Origin: Cryobacterium frigoriphilum
GTDB lineage: Bacteria; Actinomycetota; Actinomycetes; Actinomycetales; Microbacteriaceae
Assembly (NCBI RefSeq): GCF_004403305.1
Contig: NZ_SOHE01000029.1
Coordinates: 499-64,498, forward strand
Direction: 5' to 3'
DNA length: 64,000 nt
Positions within the stretch are counted from its first letter, which is position 1. Every line of letters begins with the position of its first letter. Position numbers and translations under genes: made by a program. The notes beneath the pieces were generated by a model. It was given only the letters and a program-made list of their open reading frames with translations. It made no database searches and was not told the DNA's origin. Below are positions 8,067-55,384 of the stretch, in pieces.

Positions 8067-8146
8067 CGCAAGTGAGCAGTTCTTGCGGTTGCCGACGGTT
8101 GCCGACGGTTGCCGGCCTCGGGAACCGCAAAAAGTGGTCACTCGCG
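8067..8146. repeat. Dispersed palindrome, family A, copy 1
   Basis: Imperfect inverted repeat whose ends read CGCAAGTGAGCAGTT and GTGGTCACTCGCG. An inner second pair TTGCGGTT / AACCGCAA lies inside it, and the loop holds a tandem GGTTGCCGACG. It sits between argG and the first lipoprotein gene, about 30 bases before a conserved promoter block. Copies 2 and 3 are at 10518 and 12152. Confidence 0.85.
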
Positions 8147-8175
8147 AAACAGAATCCACGGGTCTGAAAACTCGG

Positions 8176-8222
8176 CCTGTGGATAACTCCCACGGCACCC
8201 TGCTGTGTCCTACGGTGACCGC
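8176..8222 (+). promoter_or_regulatory. Conserved promoter of lipoprotein cassette, copy 1
   Basis: Shared layout in front of all three lipoprotein genes: CCTGTGG..AACTCCCAC, exactly 17 variable bases, TACGGT, GACCGC, then ATG. TACGGT is a good actinobacterial -10 and the six-base gap predicts a leaderless transcript. This copy also contains TGTGGATAA, a perfect match to the DnaA-box consensus read on the other strand. Confidence 0.75.
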
Positions 8223-8852
8223 ATGCGAACATACTCATTGCACAAACGGGCGAATCATCGCGTTCCTGTTCTCGCTCTTGGCCTGTGCCTGGGGTTGGGT
8301 CTCAGCGGATGCGCCACCACACTCGAGTCCGCTGTGTCCGTACCTCCCCCGCCCAGACCGGTGGCCTCACCGTCGACTACCCCGACCGTTGCCCCCGTCT
8401 TCACCTCCAACAACTCCGCGGTTGCCGCCGCGACCTCGGCATTCGACGCCTACCTACGGCAAATCGACGCGATCTTCTCGGCGGTCGCTGCCGACCCTGA
8501 GCTGATGCGATCGGTTGCCTCCACGACGTTCGCTGAGGAAATCATTGTCTTTGCGAACCGCGCTCGGGAATACGGCATCCACAGTGAAGGGCACGAAACC
8601 TTCGACGGAGTCAGCGTGGTCGGTATCGATGAGATCGCGGAGGGCGGAGTAGGCGTCCTCGTCGTCGACCTCTGCCTCGATCGGTCGACGTCGATATTTG
8701 TGGACGCAACGGGAGCCGTGCTAGAGGGACCCGTCGATGATCCGACGCGAAAGAACTACGTCGTGAGTTTCGATTGGAAGGACCCCACCAATCCGGGCAG
8801 TGTGATCGTTGGATCCCAAACGCCGCTGCCAGGCGGAACCGCGTGTGGGTAG
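8223..8852 (+). CDS. Secreted lipoprotein, first of the cassette
   Basis: 209 residues. A lipoprotein signal peptide is clear: basic start, hydrophobic run ALGLCLGLGLSGCA with the lipobox cysteine near 28. A Pro/Ser/Thr-rich linker follows, then a globular domain beginning FTSNNSAVAAATSAFDAYL. The start is chosen at the leaderless ATG rather than an upstream GTG because the promoter block ends exactly there. The domain is homologous, but diverged, to the two lipoproteins downstream. It resembles NTF2-like folds in length and pattern, which is a guess. Function unknown. Confidence 0.82.
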   Translation: MRTYSLHKRANHRVPVLALGLCLGLGLSGCATTLESAVSVPPPPRPVASPSTTPTVAPVFTSNNSAVAAATSAFDAYLRQIDAIFSAVAADPELMRSVASTTFAEEIIVFANRAREYGIHSEGHETFDGVSVVGIDEIAEGGVGVLVVDLCLDRSTSIFVDATGAVLEGPVDDPTRKNYVVSFDWKDPTNPGSVIVGSQTPLPGGTACG

Positions 8853-8887
8853 CGAGGTGCTGGTGTTGGCATCCCCGATAAATCCGG

Positions 8888-8934
8888 CCTGTGAAGAACT
8901 CCCACGAAGGGCATCCGTGGCCTACGGTGACCGC
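8888..8934 (+). promoter_or_regulatory. Conserved promoter of lipoprotein cassette, copy 2
   Basis: Same layout as at 8176: CCTGTG..AACTCCCAC, 17 bases, TACGGT (8923-8928), six bases, ATG. The DnaA-box-like part has decayed to TGTGAAGAA. It lies in the 82-base gap between the first and second lipoprotein genes, so each has its own promoter. Confidence 0.7.
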
Positions 8935-9522
8935 ATGCGACCACATTCCCGCAATTTTGTCCCGAAACTCGTCATGCTTGCCGCCGCGTTCGCTTGGGGG
9001 GTGAGCGGATGCGCTGCCGCCCCCGAGCCCACTCCCCCGTCATCGGCGCCGGCCCCGACCACGACAGTTGCTCCCGTGTTTGCCTCGAATGAAGAGGCCC
9101 TGGCTGCCGCGACTGAGGCGTATGCCGCCTACGAAGAAATATTCACAATTGTTGCCGCCGAAGGTGGCATCAACCCAGAGCGAATGAAACCAGTCACGTC
9201 CGGGATCTATGAAAAGGGTCTGCTGCAGGAGATGGAGGACATCCGCGCCAAGGGACTGCGAGCAATCGGCGAAGCAACATTCGACGGGGTAAGGCTTCAG
9301 CGCGTGGACGAAATGGCGCCGGGCGGCGTGGGCGTGGTTGTTGTCTATCTCTGCTCGGATGTATCCCAAGTCGACGTCCTGGATGCAAATAGCGTGTCGC
9401 AGGTCGCCCCCGCCCGAAACCCTCGAACCGCGCTGGAAGTTGGATTCAATTGGGAGCCCGGAGCCGACGGTGTGATCACGGTGGGATCTCGCACGGTCTG
9501 GAATGGTGGCGGAGTTTGCTAG
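8935..9522 (+). CDS. Secreted lipoprotein, second of the cassette
   Basis: 195 residues with a lipoprotein signal (lipobox VSGCA, cysteine near 25), a proline/threonine linker, then a domain starting FASNEEALAAATEAYAAYEE. Two cysteines, in LCSDVSQVDVLDA and the final GGGVC, could form a disulfide outside the cell. It is closely related to the protein at 10652 along its whole length. The gene runs directly into the PKD-protein gene, so the two are probably made together. Confidence 0.82.
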   Translation: MRPHSRNFVPKLVMLAAAFAWGVSGCAAAPEPTPPSSAPAPTTTVAPVFASNEEALAAATEAYAAYEEIFTIVAAEGGINPERMKPVTSGIYEKGLLQEMEDIRAKGLRAIGEATFDGVRLQRVDEMAPGGVGVVVVYLCSDVSQVDVLDANSVSQVAPARNPRTALEVGFNWEPGADGVITVGSRTVWNGGGVC

Positions 9523-9539
9523 GTCGAAATGTTTCGTTG

Positions 9540-10457
9540 GTGACTACCTTGAGTGTGGTGCTCTTCGCGGGGACGAGTCTATCTGCTGCCTCGGCTCGGG
9601 GAAGCGATCCTGAACCCTCGCTCACAGCGTCGACCACCCCCGATGCCGCCCAGCTCTACGGCTTCATTGAACGAAAACAGGACGACGCTGCCGGCACGAC
9701 CGGCACGACCGGCGCAGAAGAGAAGAAGGCAAACCTCGCCAAGAAGCTGCTCGCCTACGGTCCCGACCAATGGATCAATACTGAGGACCTCACTGTTCCA
9801 TTGGCCAAACGCGCCACCAAGAGCAAGAAACCCGGCCCCGGACTGGTCGAAATCCGAGTGGATGCCTTCGTCCTGGCCTGCATGGCCGGCGACCCCTGCG
9901 ACCCGAACCGCCCCGCAGCCGTCGTGGTGACCCCGGCGACCCCGGCCCTGCGCATCAGCGACCTCGCGACCTTCACCCCGGACGCCCCCACCCAGCAAAT
10001 GCAACCCAACGGCTGGATGGTCAAAGGACTCTCGACGAACTTCGTGGCCCGAGCAGCCGTTCACGAACAGACCGGCGAACTGCTCGGCCAACCCGCTGAC
10101 GTACGTTTCACCCCGATCAGCTACAGCTGGGACTACGGCGACGGCACCACCGGCACCTCAACGAACGGCGGCGCCACCTGGCAATGGTTGAACCTGCCCG
10201 AGTTCTCCGAGACAGACACCAGCCACACCTACGAGAGCACCGGCGAATACACAATCACCCCGAGCGTCACTTACCGCGCCGAATACCGCTACGCCGGCTC
10301 CGACTGGCTCCCCGTCGACGGAACCATCAGCATCACCGGCCCGCCGAACACCGCGACCGCATGGATCGTGCGCACCGCCCTCGTCGCCCAGAACTGCATC
10401 GACGACCCCCAAGGCATCGGCTGCCACACGGACCGCGACCCCACCCCCAACCAGTAA
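9540..10457 (+). CDS. Secreted PKD-domain protein, copy 1
   Basis: About 305 residues from the GTG at 9540; the TTG at 9537 is equally possible, so the exact start is uncertain. A hydrophobic export signal (TTLSVVLFAGTSLSAASA) is followed by a region with a cysteine pair (LACMAGDPCDPNRP). Next comes a PKD-type Ig-like fold (YSWDYGDGTTGTST ... SHTYESTGEYTITPSVTY) and a cysteine-containing tail (NCIDDPQGIGC). PKD folds mediate extracellular binding. Proteins of this layout are familiar from Microbacteriaceae but have no assigned role. It follows the lipoprotein by 17 bases. Confidence 0.75.
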   Translation: MTTLSVVLFAGTSLSAASARGSDPEPSLTASTTPDAAQLYGFIERKQDDAAGTTGTTGAEEKKANLAKKLLAYGPDQWINTEDLTVPLAKRATKSKKPGPGLVEIRVDAFVLACMAGDPCDPNRPAAVVVTPATPALRISDLATFTPDAPTQQMQPNGWMVKGLSTNFVARAAVHEQTGELLGQPADVRFTPISYSWDYGDGTTGTSTNGGATWQWLNLPEFSETDTSHTYESTGEYTITPSVTYRAEYRYAGSDWLPVDGTISITGPPNTATAWIVRTALVAQNCIDDPQGIGCHTDRDPTPNQ

Positions 10458-10488
10458 GCCGTGAGCCGTGAGCACTGAGCCGTGAGCA
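10456..10488. repeat. Tandem GCCGTGAG-type microrepeat after PKD copy 1
   Basis: Imperfect copies of GCCGTGAG (with GCACTGAG) begin at the TAA stop of the PKD gene and continue for about 33 bases. The units carry TGA in successive registers. A similar 8-bp tract follows the gene ending at 39290. Confidence 0.7.
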
Positions 10489-10517
10489 GCACGCCCGGAG
10501 CCAGGCCGGCAGCTTCT

Positions 10518-10576
10518 CGCGAGTGAGCAGTTCTGCTCCAGAACGCCGCGGGAAGCGCCAAAACTGCTCACTCGCG
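10518..10576. repeat. Dispersed palindrome, family A, copy 2
   Basis: Perfect 15-bp arms, CGCGAGTGAGCAGTT at 10518-10532 and its complement at 10562-10576, around a 29-base loop. It separates the two lipoprotein/PKD cassettes and stands ~30 bases before the promoter of the second, the same arrangement as copy 1. Confidence 0.92.
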
Positions 10577-10604
10577 GAACAAAACACCGGTGCGCGAAAT
10601 TGAG

Positions 10605-10651
10605 CCTGTGGAAAACTCCCACTGCGGGCGCCGGTGCCCTACGGTGACCGC
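10605..10651 (+). promoter_or_regulatory. Conserved promoter of lipoprotein cassette, copy 3
   Basis: CCTGTGG..AACTCCCAC, 17 bases, TACGGT (10640-10645), GACCGC, ATG. It contains TGTGGAAAA, a one-mismatch DnaA-box-like 9-mer. The near identity with the blocks at 8176 and 8888 shows that the promoter was copied together with the gene. Confidence 0.75.
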
Positions 10652-11233
10652 ATGCGCCCCCATTCCCGCGAAAATCTGGCGAAACTCGTCATCCTGACTG
10701 TCGTCGTTGGACTGAGCGGATGCGCCGCCACCCCCGAGCCCACTCCCCCGCCCCCGGTACCGTCCCCGACAGAGACGTTCACCCCCATCTTCGCCAACAA
10801 CGACGAAGCCCTCGCCGCCGCGACGACGGCCTACGCCGCATATGAGGAGTTGGCAACCGTCGTGGCTTCCGAGGGGGCTATCAACCCTGAACGAATACAA
10901 GCCGTCACATCCGGGAGCTACGAGCAATTTCTGCTTGCGGATCTCGCGGAAGCCCGGTCCGCTGGCCTCCGAACAATTGGCACGGCAACGTTCGACGGAG
11001 TGAGGCTGCAGCGTGTCGATGAAAGGGCAACCGGAGGCGTGAGCGTCGTCGTCGTTTACCTCTGCTCTGATGTCTCTCAGGTCGACGTCCTCGACGCAAA
11101 TAATGCGTCACAAGTCGCGGCTGATCGTGTCCCTCGAACAGCCCTTGAGGTCGGTTTCGATTGGGAGCCGGGACTTGATGGCGTTCTGACCGTAGGCTCG
11201 CGGGTCGCGTGGAAAGGTGGAGGAGTGTGCTGA
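10652..11233 (+). CDS. Secreted lipoprotein, third copy
   Basis: 193 residues. Signal with lipobox LSGCA (cysteine near 22), a TPPPPVPSP linker, then the same domain as the 8935 protein (FANNDEALAAATTAYAAYEE ... TFDGVRLQRVDE ... YLCSDVSQVDVLDAN ... GGGVC). The two share long identical runs, so the duplication is fairly recent. Its end overlaps the start region of the second PKD gene, which suggests coupled translation. Function unknown; exported and lipid-anchored by inference. Confidence 0.82.
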   Translation: MRPHSRENLAKLVILTVVVGLSGCAATPEPTPPPPVPSPTETFTPIFANNDEALAAATTAYAAYEELATVVASEGAINPERIQAVTSGSYEQFLLADLAEARSAGLRTIGTATFDGVRLQRVDERATGGVSVVVVYLCSDVSQVDVLDANNASQVAADRVPRTALEVGFDWEPGLDGVLTVGSRVAWKGGGVC

Positions 11234-12160
11234 CTCGGCGTTTCCTCCTGCATGTACTTTTCTGGGCGGTTCCGATGATCGGTGTGCTGCCGCTTGTGCA
11301 GGGTTACGACCCGATTCCCGAGCCAACCGTCACAGCCACGGCTGCTCCTGGTGCGTTACAAGTTGGGGGATTCCGTCAGTATGCCTACGGCGGTGGCGGC
11401 ACGGGCACGGCCGATACGACGGAGAGGAGGGTGGACCGCGCCAGGAAGGTTCTCGCCGACGATCCAGCCCGTTGGCGGATCATTGACGACCTCACTGTTC
11501 CTCTGGTGGACCGCCCAACAAAGAGCAAGGTGAAGGGTCCCGGCCTCATCGAGAGCCGAAAGGACGCCTTCGTCCTGGCCTGCATGGCCGGCGACCCCTG
11601 CGACCCGAACCGCCCCGCAGCCGTCGTGGTGACCCCGGCGACCCCGGCCCTGCGCATCAGCGACGTCGCCAGCTTCACGCCCGCCGCCCCGACCCAACAG
11701 ATGCAACCCAACGGATGGATGGTCAGAGGGCTCGCGACGAACTTCATCGCGCAGGCATCCGCGCACGAACAAAGCGGCGAACTCCTCGGCCAAACCGCAG
11801 ACGTACGATTCACCCCCAATCGGCTACGCCTGGGACTACGGCGACGGCACCACCGGCACGTCAACGAACGGCGGCGCCACCTGGCAATGGTTGAAACTGC
11901 CCGAATTCAGTGACACCGTCACCAGCCACACCTACGAGGTAACCGGTGAATACACCATCACGCCCAGCGTCACCTACAGCGCCGAATACCGCTACGCCGG
12001 ATCAGTCTGGCTACCGGTCGACGGTACCGTCACCATCCCCGGAGCCCCCACCACCGCAACAGCCTGGGTCGTGACCACCGCCCTCGTCGCCAAAAACTGC
12101 CTCGAAGACCCCGACGGCATCGGCTGCCACACGAAACACGACCCCACACCCCGCGAGTGA
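11227..12160 (+). pseudogene. Secreted PKD-domain protein, copy 2, frameshifted
   Basis: Homologue of the 9540 gene. It reads well from the GTG at 11227 (signal FLLHVLFWAVPMIGVLP) to ADVRFTP. There a run of five C at 11813-11817 replaces four C in copy 1, which throws the PKD fold out of frame; the first frame ends at 11913. The original frame resumes downstream without other damage (GYAWDYGDG..., SHTYEVTGEYTITPSVTY, NCLEDPDGIGC) to 12160. It is therefore a fresh frameshift, a +1 recoding site or a base error. The stop codon lies inside palindrome A copy 3. Confidence 0.8.
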
Positions 12161-12209
12161 GCACTATTCGCTTCCGGGGCCCGGGAAGAGCAACTACCGC
12201 TCACTCGCG
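12152..12209. repeat. Dispersed palindrome, family A, copy 3
   Basis: Arms CGCGAGTGAGCA (12152-12163) and CGCTCACTCGCG (12198-12209), one mismatch. Its left arm supplies the TGA stop of PKD copy 2, so the element has entered or formed at the 3' end of that gene. It closes the cassette array. Confidence 0.88.
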
Positions 12210-12561
12210 AAACGGGGCGGGGGCGGGGCGTCAGAGCTGCTGGGGCGCCACAAGGCTGCTCATGCGCCCGCGACCTGCGTTGGGTTTCGCGCCCAGAAGC
12301 TGCTCATGCGCCCGGAACCTGCACCCTCCCAGCATCATGCGCCTGAAAGCTGCGCATGCGCCCACGATAACAGGCGCTCGAGCCGCTTTTGGGCGCACGA
12401 GTGAAACAACGTGGAGGTATCGGGCGCAGCAGCAGCGCAGGGGCGCAGCCCGCGATGCAGGGTCGCAGCGCCAGCCCCGCTCGGCGTGACATCGCGCCGG
12501 ACGTGCACGGGGCGGTTACTCGCCAAAAAGCGGCGCCAGTCGAGTCCAGACGCGAGGCGGG
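12210..12561. other. Non-coding stretch between PKD copy 2 and argF
   Basis: About 350 bases without a supportable gene between convergent transcription units. It holds the family D repeats and further GGGCGCA/TGCGCCC cores that could fold and act as terminators for either side. I see no open frame with family features. Confidence 0.6.
12255..12363. repeat. Local repeat cluster, family D (GCTGCTCATGCGCCC)
   Basis: Two 24-base direct repeats, at 12255-12278 and 12299-12322, share GCTGCTCATGCGCCCG and end in ACCTGC. A third, shorter and diverged copy, GCTGCGCATGCGCCC, is at 12349-12363, and a more decayed one lies near 12331. Reverse-complement cores (GGGCGCA) recur to about 12450, so hairpins can form. 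Confidence 0.75.
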
Positions 12562-37087: not shown

Positions 37088-37168
37088 CCCCCATCGTGGC
37101 AGCCTCGCGGCAGGGTCGGGGGCGGTCTGTGCCACCCTCATCGTCGCTGCCCCGACGACGGATGCCGC

Positions 37169-37228
37169 GGCGCAGGTTAGATTCGCGGGCGCAGTTTCTA
37201 TACTGCGCCCGCGAATCTAACCTGCGCC
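37169..37228. repeat. Dispersed palindrome, family B, copy 1
   Basis: Perfect 27-bp arms (37169-37195 and 37202-37228) around a 6-base loop TTCTAT. The arm begins GGCGCAGGTTAGATTCGCGG and ends GGCGCAGT. This is one of the most perfect palindromes in the window. It forms the last codons and the stop of the AbiEi/DUF559 gene. Confidence 0.96.
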
Positions 37229-38226
37229 CGGCGGCCCGACTCCGCCCGCGGCATCCCGTTCTCGGTGAGAAAGGTGAGGAATCGCTGCGGTGAGTAGGCC
37301 ACATCCCAGCCCCAGCGCGAGAAACTGGTGACGTGCGGACGCAAGAGGTCTTCCCGCCATTTCTCCCGGGTCACGACGTCGCCTGGGTCCCGATCGCCGA
37401 GCACTGCCCCGCGGGAGTATTTGAGGTTTCCGTCAAACTCGCCAATCTTCCGGATTCCGCGCCAGAAGAAGTCCACCCAGAACGACTGCCCGTCTACCTG
37501 GAAGCGCACTTGCAGCTCCGGAACCTCAAAGCCCAGCTCGAAGATGCGCACCCTACTGAGGGTCTCCCCCGGGTTCGCCGAGAGCCCGCTGGAAAAAGTG
37601 ATGGATTTCTCGGCCTGCCCGGCACCGACCCGCGGTCTGACTGCGGCCAGCTCGGCGAAGAGGGCGTCCTGTGCCAGGGCGGGCGCCGGGGTCATCCCGC
37701 GTTTCCGGGCCAGGGCGACGCGCTGATTCTCCTCACGCAACACATGGTCAATCATCGTCACACCCACGAGCAGAGTCGAACTCGCCGCCACGTCGACGAG
37801 CGTTCGGGCCAGGCTCGTCACCGTGAGGCCTCCGATGACCACGGTGTCGGGCTCGGGCACTCCGCGGTGACTCGTGGTCAGACGTGCGGTGCTGCCGCCC
37901 GTGGCATCCGTCGCAATGGTGTGCACGGCCGGGGGCCAGCCGCCGATGATCGGCAGGCCATGCATGCTTGCGGCCGAGTGGTGCGACAACACGAGCGGAT
38001 GCTCCGCCGCGGCCGCAGTCGCCCGCACGAGAAGGCGGTAACGCCCATCGACACCGCCCTCCCGCCACAGCGCACCGAGGCAATAGATGCCACGGCGCAC
38101 GCGCACGAGTTCACCTCGCGATGCAAGATCACGCACTGCGCGCAGCGGCAGTCCCGCCGCGCGCAGTGCAGAGAATGTGACGAGCCCGTCGTACCGGGCC
38201 GAAACCGTGTCGAGGATGTCGCGCAT
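37198..38226 (-). CDS. AbiEi-like winged-helix plus DUF559/Vsr-like nuclease-fold protein, solo
   Basis: 342 residues from MRDILDTVS. The N-terminus (RYDGLVTFSALRAAGLPLRAVRDLASRGELVRVRRGIYCLG) is the AbiEi antitoxin-type winged helix. The C-terminus (FELGFEVPELQVRFQ ... FWVDFFWRGIRKIGEFDGNLKYSRG) has the D-x(n)-E-x-D-x-K pattern of a PD-(D/E)xK or Vsr-like nuclease. No AbiEii toxin gene is adjacent. Its last ~10 codons (AQVRFAGAV) and TAG stop come from palindrome B copy 1, and copy 2 lies just upstream. Role unknown; type IV toxin-antitoxin annotation would be by N-terminal homology only. Confidence 0.82.
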   Translation of the reverse strand: MRDILDTVSARYDGLVTFSALRAAGLPLRAVRDLASRGELVRVRRGIYCLGALWREGGVDGRYRLLVRATAAAAEHPLVLSHHSAASMHGLPIIGGWPPAVHTIATDATGGSTARLTTSHRGVPEPDTVVIGGLTVTSLARTLVDVAASSTLLVGVTMIDHVLREENQRVALARKRGMTPAPALAQDALFAELAAVRPRVGAGQAEKSITFSSGLSANPGETLSRVRIFELGFEVPELQVRFQVDGQSFWVDFFWRGIRKIGEFDGNLKYSRGAVLGDRDPGDVVTREKWREDLLRPHVTSFSRWGWDVAYSPQRFLTFLTENGMPRAESGRRAQVRFAGAV

Positions 38227-38338
38227 ACCCCACCCTCCCCCGGCCAGCACGGGCGGTGGGGATGTTTTCGCCGAATTGTGGAGTCACCGGGGCCGGGGCG
38301 TGCTGTGGAGGGACCGTCCGCGCAGCCGGCAATAGCGG

Positions 38339-38405
38339 CCCGGGCGCAGGTTCGATTCGCGGGCGCAGTTTCCATACTGCGCCCGCGAATCCAACCTGCG
38401 CCCGG
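38339..38405. repeat. Dispersed palindrome, family B, copy 2
   Basis: 30-bp arms with one mismatch around TTCCAT, starting CCGGGCGCAGG. Almost identical to copy 1. It lies 110 bases upstream of the AbiEi/DUF559 gene and 30 bases before the next gene. With copy 1 it brackets a ~1.1-kb single-gene segment. Confidence 0.95.
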
Positions 38406-38423
38406 CCGACGGATGCCCCGCAC

Positions 38424-55269: not shown

Positions 55270-55297
55270 GCCGCCGTCATGTGCCTCGTGCCGACCG

Positions 55298-55357
55298 GGC
55301 GCAGGTTGGTTACGCGGGCTCAGGATAGAACCTGCGCCCGCGTAACAAACCTGCGCC
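55298..55357. repeat. Dispersed palindrome, family B, copy 3
   Basis: 22-bp arms GGCGCAGGTTGGTTACGCGG(GC) at 55298-55319 and the complement with one mismatch at 55336-55357. The outer GGCGCAGGTT and inner GCGGGC match copies 1 and 2, but the middle differs and compensating changes keep the pairing. It lies between convergent soxR and marR. Confidence 0.9.
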
Positions 55358-55384
55358 GCGGCATCCGCTGACGCCACACGGCGG

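What the first reader, a model, noticed from the sequence alone, without database searches (positions are those of the whole stretch)
8067..12209. Tandem palindrome-bounded cassettes of lipoproteins and PKD proteins inside the arginine cluster
The order is A1-[lipoprotein, lipoprotein, PKD]-A2-[lipoprotein, PKD]-A3, where A is the same ~60-80 bp palindrome. Each cassette opens with the same promoter block. All products carry export signals. The array splits argF from argG, which normally sit together. The organisation is that of a modular secreted two-component unit (lipid-anchored NTF2-like partner plus PKD protein) that can grow or shrink by recombination between A copies. I know of no named system with this layout.
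Basis: partly seen in the sequence, partly recalled or inferred. Interest (0 to 1): 0.78.

Follow-up and report, generated by a model that had tools for sequence, protein, structure and literature searches.

The report
Duplicated pilus-linked lipoprotein–PKD gene pair
The array is an extra, duplicated copy of a two-gene surface-protein operon that is widespread in this bacterial family; its unusual promoter element is shared with the gene for the motor of Flp pili, filaments used for DNA uptake in a related bacterium, while the palindromes around it are dispersed repeats rather than parts of the unit.

Summary
The described anatomy is real: argG, A1, lipoprotein, lipoprotein, PKD, A2, lipoprotein, PKD (frameshifted), A3, argF. 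The unit is the lipoprotein–PKD gene pair, not a palindrome-bounded cassette. The pair is in 53 of 57 Cryobacterium genomes; in a PKD-seeded search across the family the lipoprotein gene lies within 300 nt upstream in 80 of 80 loci kept. A is a dispersed repeat: 24 places in this genome, 21 away from the pair. A complete A is present in 1 of 60 pair loci of relatives, is missing at argG in C. melibiosiphilum, and a tandem array in another genus lacks it. Exact 92–99 nt tracts and a lipoprotein tree point to gene conversion between copies. New lead: CTGTGGAWAACT lies 34–38 nt before the lipoprotein ATG in 57 of 59 Cryobacterium copies (up to 3 mismatches), and 36–38 nt before the ATG of tadA, the Flp-pilus ATPase gene, in 28 of 30 loci. 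It also occurs at a SAF/RcpC-like pilus locus, partly at other spacing. I propose an accessory envelope part of the Flp-pilus/DNA-uptake machinery. The promoter link is well supported, the function inferred; comEA lacks the element, and a DnaA-box reading remains open.

The parts
8067..8146 (.). A1, imperfect palindrome of the dispersed A family; absent at the same place in C. melibiosiphilum
8177..8222 (+). promoter region of lipoprotein 1: CTGTGGATAACT at 8177-8188, TACGGT, then ATG 34 nt after the 12-mer (leaderless by inference)
8223..8852 (+). lipoprotein 1 (209 aa; lipobox LSGC); groups with lipoprotein 1 at the same site of C. melibiosiphilum
8889..8934 (+). degenerate promoter region of lipoprotein 2 (CTGTGAAGAACT)
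8935..9522 (+). lipoprotein 2 (195 aa), NTF2-like predicted fold; C26, C140, C195 invariant in the family alignment
9498..10457 (+). PKD protein 1 (frame open from TTG 9450; the family's usual start position, 9498, is CTG here); N-terminal hydrophobic export signal, PKD domain
10518..10576 (.). A2 palindrome
10606..10651 (+). promoter region of lipoprotein 3 (CTGTGGAAAACT at 10606-10617, ATG 34 nt later)
10652..11233 (+). lipoprotein 3 (193 aa), 70% identical to lipoprotein 2
11209..12160 (+). PKD protein 2, starts 25 nt inside lipoprotein 3 (GTG); frame changes near 11814, the rest lies in frame 11816-12160
12152..12209 (.). A3 palindrome, overlapping the PKD2 stop
9864..9962 (+). 99-nt tract identical to 11566-11664 in PKD2 (read as a gene-conversion tract)

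Best explanation
The array is a lineage-specific amplification of an operon widespread in Microbacteriaceae: a lipid-anchored NTF2-fold lipoprotein followed, usually with a short gene overlap, by a secreted PKD-domain protein. It is probably transcribed as a leaderless mRNA from a distinctive promoter, CTGTGGAWAACT centred near -43 with TANNNT at -10. The same element at the same distance precedes tadA, the Flp-pilus ATPase gene, and a 197-residue gene beside a SAF/RcpC-like pilus gene; it precedes the SAF gene itself at a larger distance. The operon therefore most likely belongs to the Flp-pilus/DNA-uptake regulon. Its products most likely form an extracytoplasmic accessory: the lipoprotein a membrane-tethered scaffold, the PKD protein a wall- or pilus-facing partner. 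Extra copies at argG and leuA arose by duplication and exchange sequence by gene conversion. The A palindromes are dispersed repeats beside some copies. Shown by sequence: pairing, overlap, promoter sharing, spread, identical tracts, A's independence. Inferred: leaderless transcription, one common regulator, binding of the two proteins, and the pilus or DNA-uptake role.
For: Pairing: same-strand pair in 53 of 57 Cryobacterium genomes; lipoprotein gene upstream, profile ends -22 to 298 nt apart, in 80 of 80 PKD-seeded loci (one search kept the best 80 of 115). The PKD start lies 25-34 nt before the lipoprotein gene's end in 49 of 58 copies by mechanical start choice. Promoter: 12-mer within 3 mismatches in 57 of 59 lipoprotein promoters, spacing 34-38 nt, against 14 of 1180 random 70-mers. 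Named loci: 50 of 77 within 2 mismatches, all 50 with TANNNT before a start codon, against 0 of at most 308 control windows. Further family members: 14 of 15 copies within 2 mismatches. tadA: 27 of 30 within 2 mismatches, 28 of 30 within 3, spacing 36-38; background 21 of 742 tiles, promoters included. SAF locus; divergent HTH_17 gene. In Micrococcus luteus a knock-out of the SAF gene Mlut_14650 cut transformability about 10,000-fold (PMC8467076, section 24 part 1). Conversion: tree, exact tracts of 99 and 92 nt. Neighbourhood: 15-40 kb upstream of tadA, same strand, in 24 of 53 genomes.
Against: comEA does not carry the element by weight matrix: best forward scores -1.8 and -1.2 in two genomes against 12.8 and above for lipoprotein sites; of the other two loci one start was not found and one looks misassigned. 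At the SAF gene the spacing is 69-104 nt to the start candidates, not 34-38. In 29 of 53 genomes the pair is not 15-40 kb upstream of tadA, and no pair lies within 15 kb of it where both share a contig. The exact 12-mer also occurs near the origin and nrd genes (named by eye) and contains a strict DnaA box in 32 of 59 lipoprotein and 24 of 30 tadA promoters. 27 of 77 named loci lack the element within 2 mismatches, and 0 of 5 loci outside the family have it. The Cryobacterium lipoprotein starts were chosen partly by a -10-like sequence, so the -10 is not independent there. The 30 tadA loci are the best-scoring of 57 genomes. All 57 genomes have tadA, so presence and absence is uninformative. 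I found no expression, pilus or transformation data for this pair.
Confidence: 0.52

Rival explanations
1. Palindrome-bounded cassette: A elements are the boundaries through which cassettes are gained and lost.
For: A sits at each boundary here, and 75-76 nt before the lipoprotein ATG in four copies at three sites in two species.
Against: A is absent at the argG junction of C. melibiosiphilum, from the fetched loci of this genome's own leuA and rpsA copies at up to 1 mismatch, and both arms are present in only 1 of 60 pair loci of relatives; 21 of 24 A places lie elsewhere; a tandem array in another genus lacks A. The identical tracts lie inside PKD genes, not at A.
Confidence: 0.07
2. The promoter element is a DnaA box. 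The pair, tadA and the SAF locus are under replication- or cell-cycle-linked DnaA control, and the pair is a general envelope factor unrelated to pili.
For: The exact 12-mer contains TTATCCACA, a DnaA box (recalled); hits also lie near the origin and upstream of nrd genes, named by eye. A strict box is present in 32 of 59 lipoprotein and 24 of 30 tadA promoters.
Against: 27 of 59 lipoprotein promoters lack the strict box although 57 of 59 keep the element at its position; the rigid 34-38 nt spacing suggests contact with RNA polymerase.
Confidence: 0.22
3. A surface adhesin or antigen-like module, or a secreted effector with a lipoprotein partner, diversified by gene conversion; the shared promoter reflects a general surface programme.
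For: The first 240 aligned nt of PKD1 and PKD2 are 38-57% identical, the later part 65-95%; PKD domains are common in surface proteins (recalled).
Against: Widespread, mostly single-copy presence (43 of 53 genomes have one pair) is unlike variable antigens or toxin-immunity sets; no catalytic or toxin domain was found by the libraries searched.
Confidence: 0.15

Closest known systems
Flp (Tad) pilus and com genes of Micrococcus luteus (PMC8467076, PMC4322843; passages and one section part seen)
   Same: tadA, and a SAF/RcpC-like gene next to a divergent HTH_17 gene and followed by a frame resembling TadZ by eye, occur here; the pair shares its promoter element with tadA and this locus.
   Different: PKD and lipoprotein are not mentioned in either text (0 occurrences); comEA lacks the element here; M. 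luteus itself was not searched.
NTF2-like fold proteins (ARC6/PARC6 intermembrane domains, Tim44, VirB8-type CagV)
   Different: 7-12% identity in those rows; no convincing Pfam family among 62 lipoproteins scanned (best stray E 0.0058 in one member); a shared fold shows no function.
PKD domains of secreted proteases (ColH, PrtV)
   Same: Top fold matches (E 0.004 and 0.007, none at 0.001) and the Pfam PKD hit.
   Different: No protease domain found; invariant C-terminal cysteines.
Dispersed REP-like palindromes of bacterial genomes (recalled)
   Same: A is a palindrome of about 60 nt in scattered copies, with more than ten arms in only four of 57 Cryobacterium genomes.
   Different: No associated transposase was looked for.

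Membership tests
Flp-pilus regulon (Microbacteriaceae) | shares the promoter element and its spacing with tadA | tested here: met
   lipoprotein 57 of 59, tadA 28 of 30 within 3 mismatches, spacing 34-38 and 36-38
Flp-pilus regulon (Microbacteriaceae) | encoded in or next to the tad operon | tested here: not met
   15-40 kb upstream on the same strand in 24 of 53 genomes, elsewhere or on another contig in 29
Flp-pilus regulon (Microbacteriaceae) | same element at comEA | tested here: inconclusive
   no lipoprotein-like site in the 2 of 4 loci with a clear start
Flp-pilus regulon (Microbacteriaceae) | needed for piliation or DNA uptake | not testable with these tools
   needs mutants
Palindrome-bounded cassette | A at the ends of the unit in relatives | tested here: not met
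   both arms in 1 of 60 Cryobacterium pair loci; absent at argG in C. melibiosiphilum
Bacterial lipoprotein | signal peptide with lipobox cysteine | tested here: met
   C26 invariant in 62 aligned sequences; lipobox read by eye
PKD domain | profile match over cut-off | tested here: met
   PF00801, 28.9 bits against 23.5 for PKD1; PKD2's second frame is below cut-off at 19.2
NTF2-like superfamily | fold | tested here: met
   model pLDDT 87.3; NTF2-like matches

The most novel reading that the evidence does not exclude
The lipoprotein–PKD pair is an unrecognised, family-wide extracytoplasmic part of the actinobacterial Flp-pilus DNA-uptake machine in Microbacteriaceae, and CTGTGGAWAACT with a leaderless start is the binding site of its still unknown regulator, which would make competence control in these bacteria directly testable.
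Probability: 0.33. Interest if true: 0.8.

Novelty: new variant of a known kind. Interest (0 to 1): 0.6.

Why it matters
The upstream regulatory cascade of competence in Micrococcus luteus is stated to be still unidentified (PMC12849477, passages seen). A conserved promoter element that ties tadA, a SAF/RcpC-like locus and an uncharacterised two-gene surface operon together gives a concrete bait for such a regulator and a new candidate pilus component. It also corrects a tempting misreading: the palindromes are bystanders.

Tried and rejected
Palindrome-bounded cassette: rejected (see rivals). Defence system: no PADLOC match for the four proteins scanned. Phage origin: PHROGs gave no match for three of four proteins and one weak match for the fourth (E 0.006, Rz-like spanin, residues 5-64 of lipoprotein 3). 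Curated families: nothing convincing in Pfam for the lipoproteins or in NCBIfam for the PKD proteins. Solved relatives by sequence: none at E 0.01 for the PKD profile; five marginal ones (E 0.012-0.8) for the lipoprotein profile. comEA as a regulon member: suspected by eye, not upheld by weight matrix. Species-wise grouping was tested on PKD genes too and does not hold there for the whole gene: 75.1% PKD1/PKD2 here, 71.0% arg/leuA in C. melibiosiphilum, but 72.4-72.6% between species; only the exact tracts and the lipoprotein tree support conversion. Flank clustering gave one mixed cluster that seems due to a repeated protein family (by eye); it was not used. Paper searches: lipoprotein + PKD domain + Microbacteriaceae, NTF2-like + lipoprotein + PKD domain + Actinobacteria, and concerted evolution + gene conversion + lipoprotein + tandem + Actinobacteria returned no paper; prophage + tadA + serine integrase + competence returned one review, and palindromic repeat + intergenic + Microbacteriaceae two papers, all seen as listings only.

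Not done: the argF-argG interval was compared only with C. melibiosiphilum, whose contig ends inside it. Co-occurrence of the pair with tadA outside the genus was not tested. Three of 62 Cryobacterium loci gave no callable lipoprotein start (L068, L073, L084) and were dropped before the promoter counts.
Full report
Observation. The array is where the finding puts it. Reading and translation give lipoprotein 8223-8852, lipoprotein 8935-9522, PKD 9498-10457, lipoprotein 10652-11233 and PKD 11209-12160, with A palindromes at 8067-8146, 10518-10576 and 12152-12209, between argG and argF, which run the other way. The A arms are unlikely by chance in the window. PKD2 is frameshifted near 11814; whether this is a pseudogene or a sequencing error is open.

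The A palindromes. The exact arm occurs 31 times in this genome. Grouping arms less than 60 bp apart leaves 24 places; 3 of these lie at lipoprotein-PKD loci (A2, A3 and the C64 fragment). A1 has mismatches and is not in that count. Of 20 other places fetched, 8 show both arms within 2 mismatches each. Across 57 Cryobacterium genomes only four have more than ten exact arms: this one 31, G021 93, G055 21, G024 13. G021 is C. melibiosiphilum, judged by its contig lengths. Its argG site holds the same lipo-lipo-PKD start, but no A lies between argG and the first lipoprotein gene; its contig ends shortly after the PKD gene, in a different palindrome-like repeat seen by eye. Its leuA copy does carry A. 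In four copies (two here at argG, the C64 fragment, the C. melibiosiphilum leuA copy) A lies 75-76 nt before the ATG (my count), so A was at times duplicated along with a copy. Of 60 pair loci fetched from other Cryobacterium genomes, an arm within 1 mismatch lies within 400 nt of the pair in 2 (L050, L081), and both arms in 1 (L050); among 80 named loci both arms occur only in L194, the same copy.

The unit is the gene pair. The PKD protein is found in 56 of 57 Cryobacterium genomes and the lipoprotein in 56 of 57. Pairing the 78 lipoprotein and 78 PKD hits gives 68 same-strand pairs in 53 genomes; in the two-lipoprotein arrays the first lipoprotein is counted with the PKD gene beyond its neighbour. 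Of the 10 unpaired lipoprotein hits, 7 lie within 900 bases of a contig start. A PKD-seeded search of named genomes kept 80 of 115 relatives, from Microbacteriaceae or from bins not named to a genus, as far as titles tell; in 80 of 80 a lipoprotein gene lies upstream on the same strand, profile ends -22 to 298 nt apart. In the order-wide sample 73 of 396 genomes have the lipoprotein; in the own family 32 match and 2 listed genomes do not, while 303 further misses are not listed. In 5 loci from other families, 1 has a PKD gene in the 5 kb fetched and none has the promoter element. The PKD start, chosen mechanically, lies 25-34 nt before the end of the lipoprotein gene in 49 of 58 copies.

Place and copies. 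Of 60 fetched pair loci, 26 share both flanks: an aminotransferase-like gene upstream, named by eye, and downstream a gene that in the one member scanned is a trypsin/PDZ protease. The same neighbourhood recurs in other genera: 36 upstream and 35 downstream flanks of the 80 named loci fall in one cluster each. This looks like the ancestral site. This genome instead has copies at argG-argF, at leuA-era (split by a contig gap, C41 end and C66 start), at rpsA and a fragment on C64. Of the 60 loci only the two of C. melibiosiphilum lie at argG and leuA. In the protein tree the lipoprotein-1 genes of the two species group together (95/95), as expected for a shared site, but the other array and leuA copies group by species (98/98 and 97/96), not by site. 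For whole PKD genes this does not hold: 75.1% between PKD1 and PKD2 here, 71.0% between the C. melibiosiphilum copies, 72.4-72.6% between species. Yet PKD1 and PKD2 share a 99-nt identical tract, and the two C. melibiosiphilum PKD genes one of 92 nt, while the longest tract found between the species is 38 nt. I read this as gene conversion over short tracts. A tandem array in another genus of the family has a period of 1736 bp and is 96% identical over the 300 nt reported; a perfect 24-nt palindrome of another sequence lies once between its cassettes, and no A arm is present.

Proteins. The lipoproteins share an invariant lipobox cysteine, an inner cysteine and a cysteine at or near the C-terminus. 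The predicted fold is NTF2-like (pLDDT 87.3; Foldseek; second look, best rows ARC6/PARC6). The PKD protein model is confident only over about residues 150-290; its top matches are PKD domains of ColH and PrtV at E 0.004 and 0.007.

The promoter. Upstream of the lipoprotein gene lies CTGTGGAWAACT, then a TANNNT sequence and, 5-7 nt later, the start codon, with no room for a ribosome site; leaderless transcription is my inference. The starts in Cryobacterium were chosen partly by that -10-like sequence, so only the 12-mer is an independent observation there. In 59 copies its best match has 0, 1, 2, 3 or 4 mismatches in 22, 14, 7, 14 and 2 cases, at 34-38 nt from the ATG for the 57 with up to 3; random 70-mers from the same loci reach 3 or fewer in 14 of 1180, and some of these may overlap the real sites. 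Across the named loci 50 of 77 have it within 2 mismatches, and all 50 have the -10 sequence, which was not pre-selected there; 27 do not reach that level. Of 15 copies in further family genomes 14 have it. The exact 12-mer gave 14 and 6 sites in two genomes against 0 and 0 for the reversed pattern, and with 1 mismatch 35, 22, 19 and 31 sites against 3, 4, 5 and 6 in G000, G044, G038 and G022. Apart from lipoprotein genes and sites near the replication origin and nrd genes (named by eye), hits lie upstream of tadA and at a SAF locus. There the 197-residue gene has the element 35-36 nt before its GTG in the four genomes read. The next gene matches SAF below Pfam's cut-off in G044 (19.5 against 21 bits) and not at all in this genome; the element lies 69-104 nt before its start candidates. 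Between them is a divergent HTH_17 gene, and downstream a frame that resembles TadZ by eye but has no Pfam match. A similar arrangement is described for Mlut_14660/14650/14640 of M. luteus, where a knock-out of Mlut_14650 lost about 10,000-fold transformability (PMC8467076, section 24 part 1). Testing tadA directly: all 57 genomes have it; of the 30 loci fetched, the best-scoring ones, 27 carry the element within 2 mismatches and 28 within 3, at 36-38 nt. The element also resembles a DnaA box: 32 of 59 lipoprotein and 24 of 30 tadA promoters contain the strict box. comEA does not carry it by weight matrix in the two loci that could be tested.

Reading. The shared, rigidly spaced promoter element and a position 15-40 kb upstream of tadA in 24 of 53 genomes make a joint regulon with Flp pili the best-supported view. 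I rate the promoter link at about 0.7, the accessory pilus/DNA-uptake role at about 0.4 and A as a bystander at above 0.9. Papers: PMC8467076 passages and one section part; PMC4322843, PMC12849477 and PMC8591293 passages only. The last reports tad/flp genes that rise in the dark in Rhodoluna lacicola, a freshwater actinobacterium, a possible source of co-expression data.

Noticed in passing
Cryobacterium genomes G003, G022, G030, G032, G041, G050, G056; loci L323-L328, L331, L332: tadA is split in 7 of 57 genomes, near codon 140-155 or 290-307, by about 10-54 kb or across contigs (G032). Large serine recombinases lie beside the break in four loci scanned, and a phage portal gene inside a fifth: mobile elements or prophages sitting in a pilus gene, like the comK prophages of Listeria (recalled).
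   Followed up: partly
window 37164-37239, 38338-38413, 55293-55368: A second palindrome family (GGGCGCAGGTT...AACCTGCGCCC), unrelated to A.
   Followed up: no
window 12245-12372: Three short direct repeats around GCTGCTCATGCGCCCG between A3 and argF.
   Followed up: no
L149, L155 (genome G044): Two genes with products similar by eye carry a related element 36-37 nt before the ATG. One product matches DUF559 just over the cut-off, the other matches no Pfam family; possible further regulon members.
   Followed up: partly
L112 (own genome, C48): A 134-residue protein without Pfam match has the exact 12-mer 34 nt before its ATG.
   Followed up: no
genome G018, contigs C13, C15, C16, C34: Two lipoprotein genes and two PKD ends all lie at contig ends, which suggests near-identical PKD middles that collapsed in assembly.
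   Followed up: no
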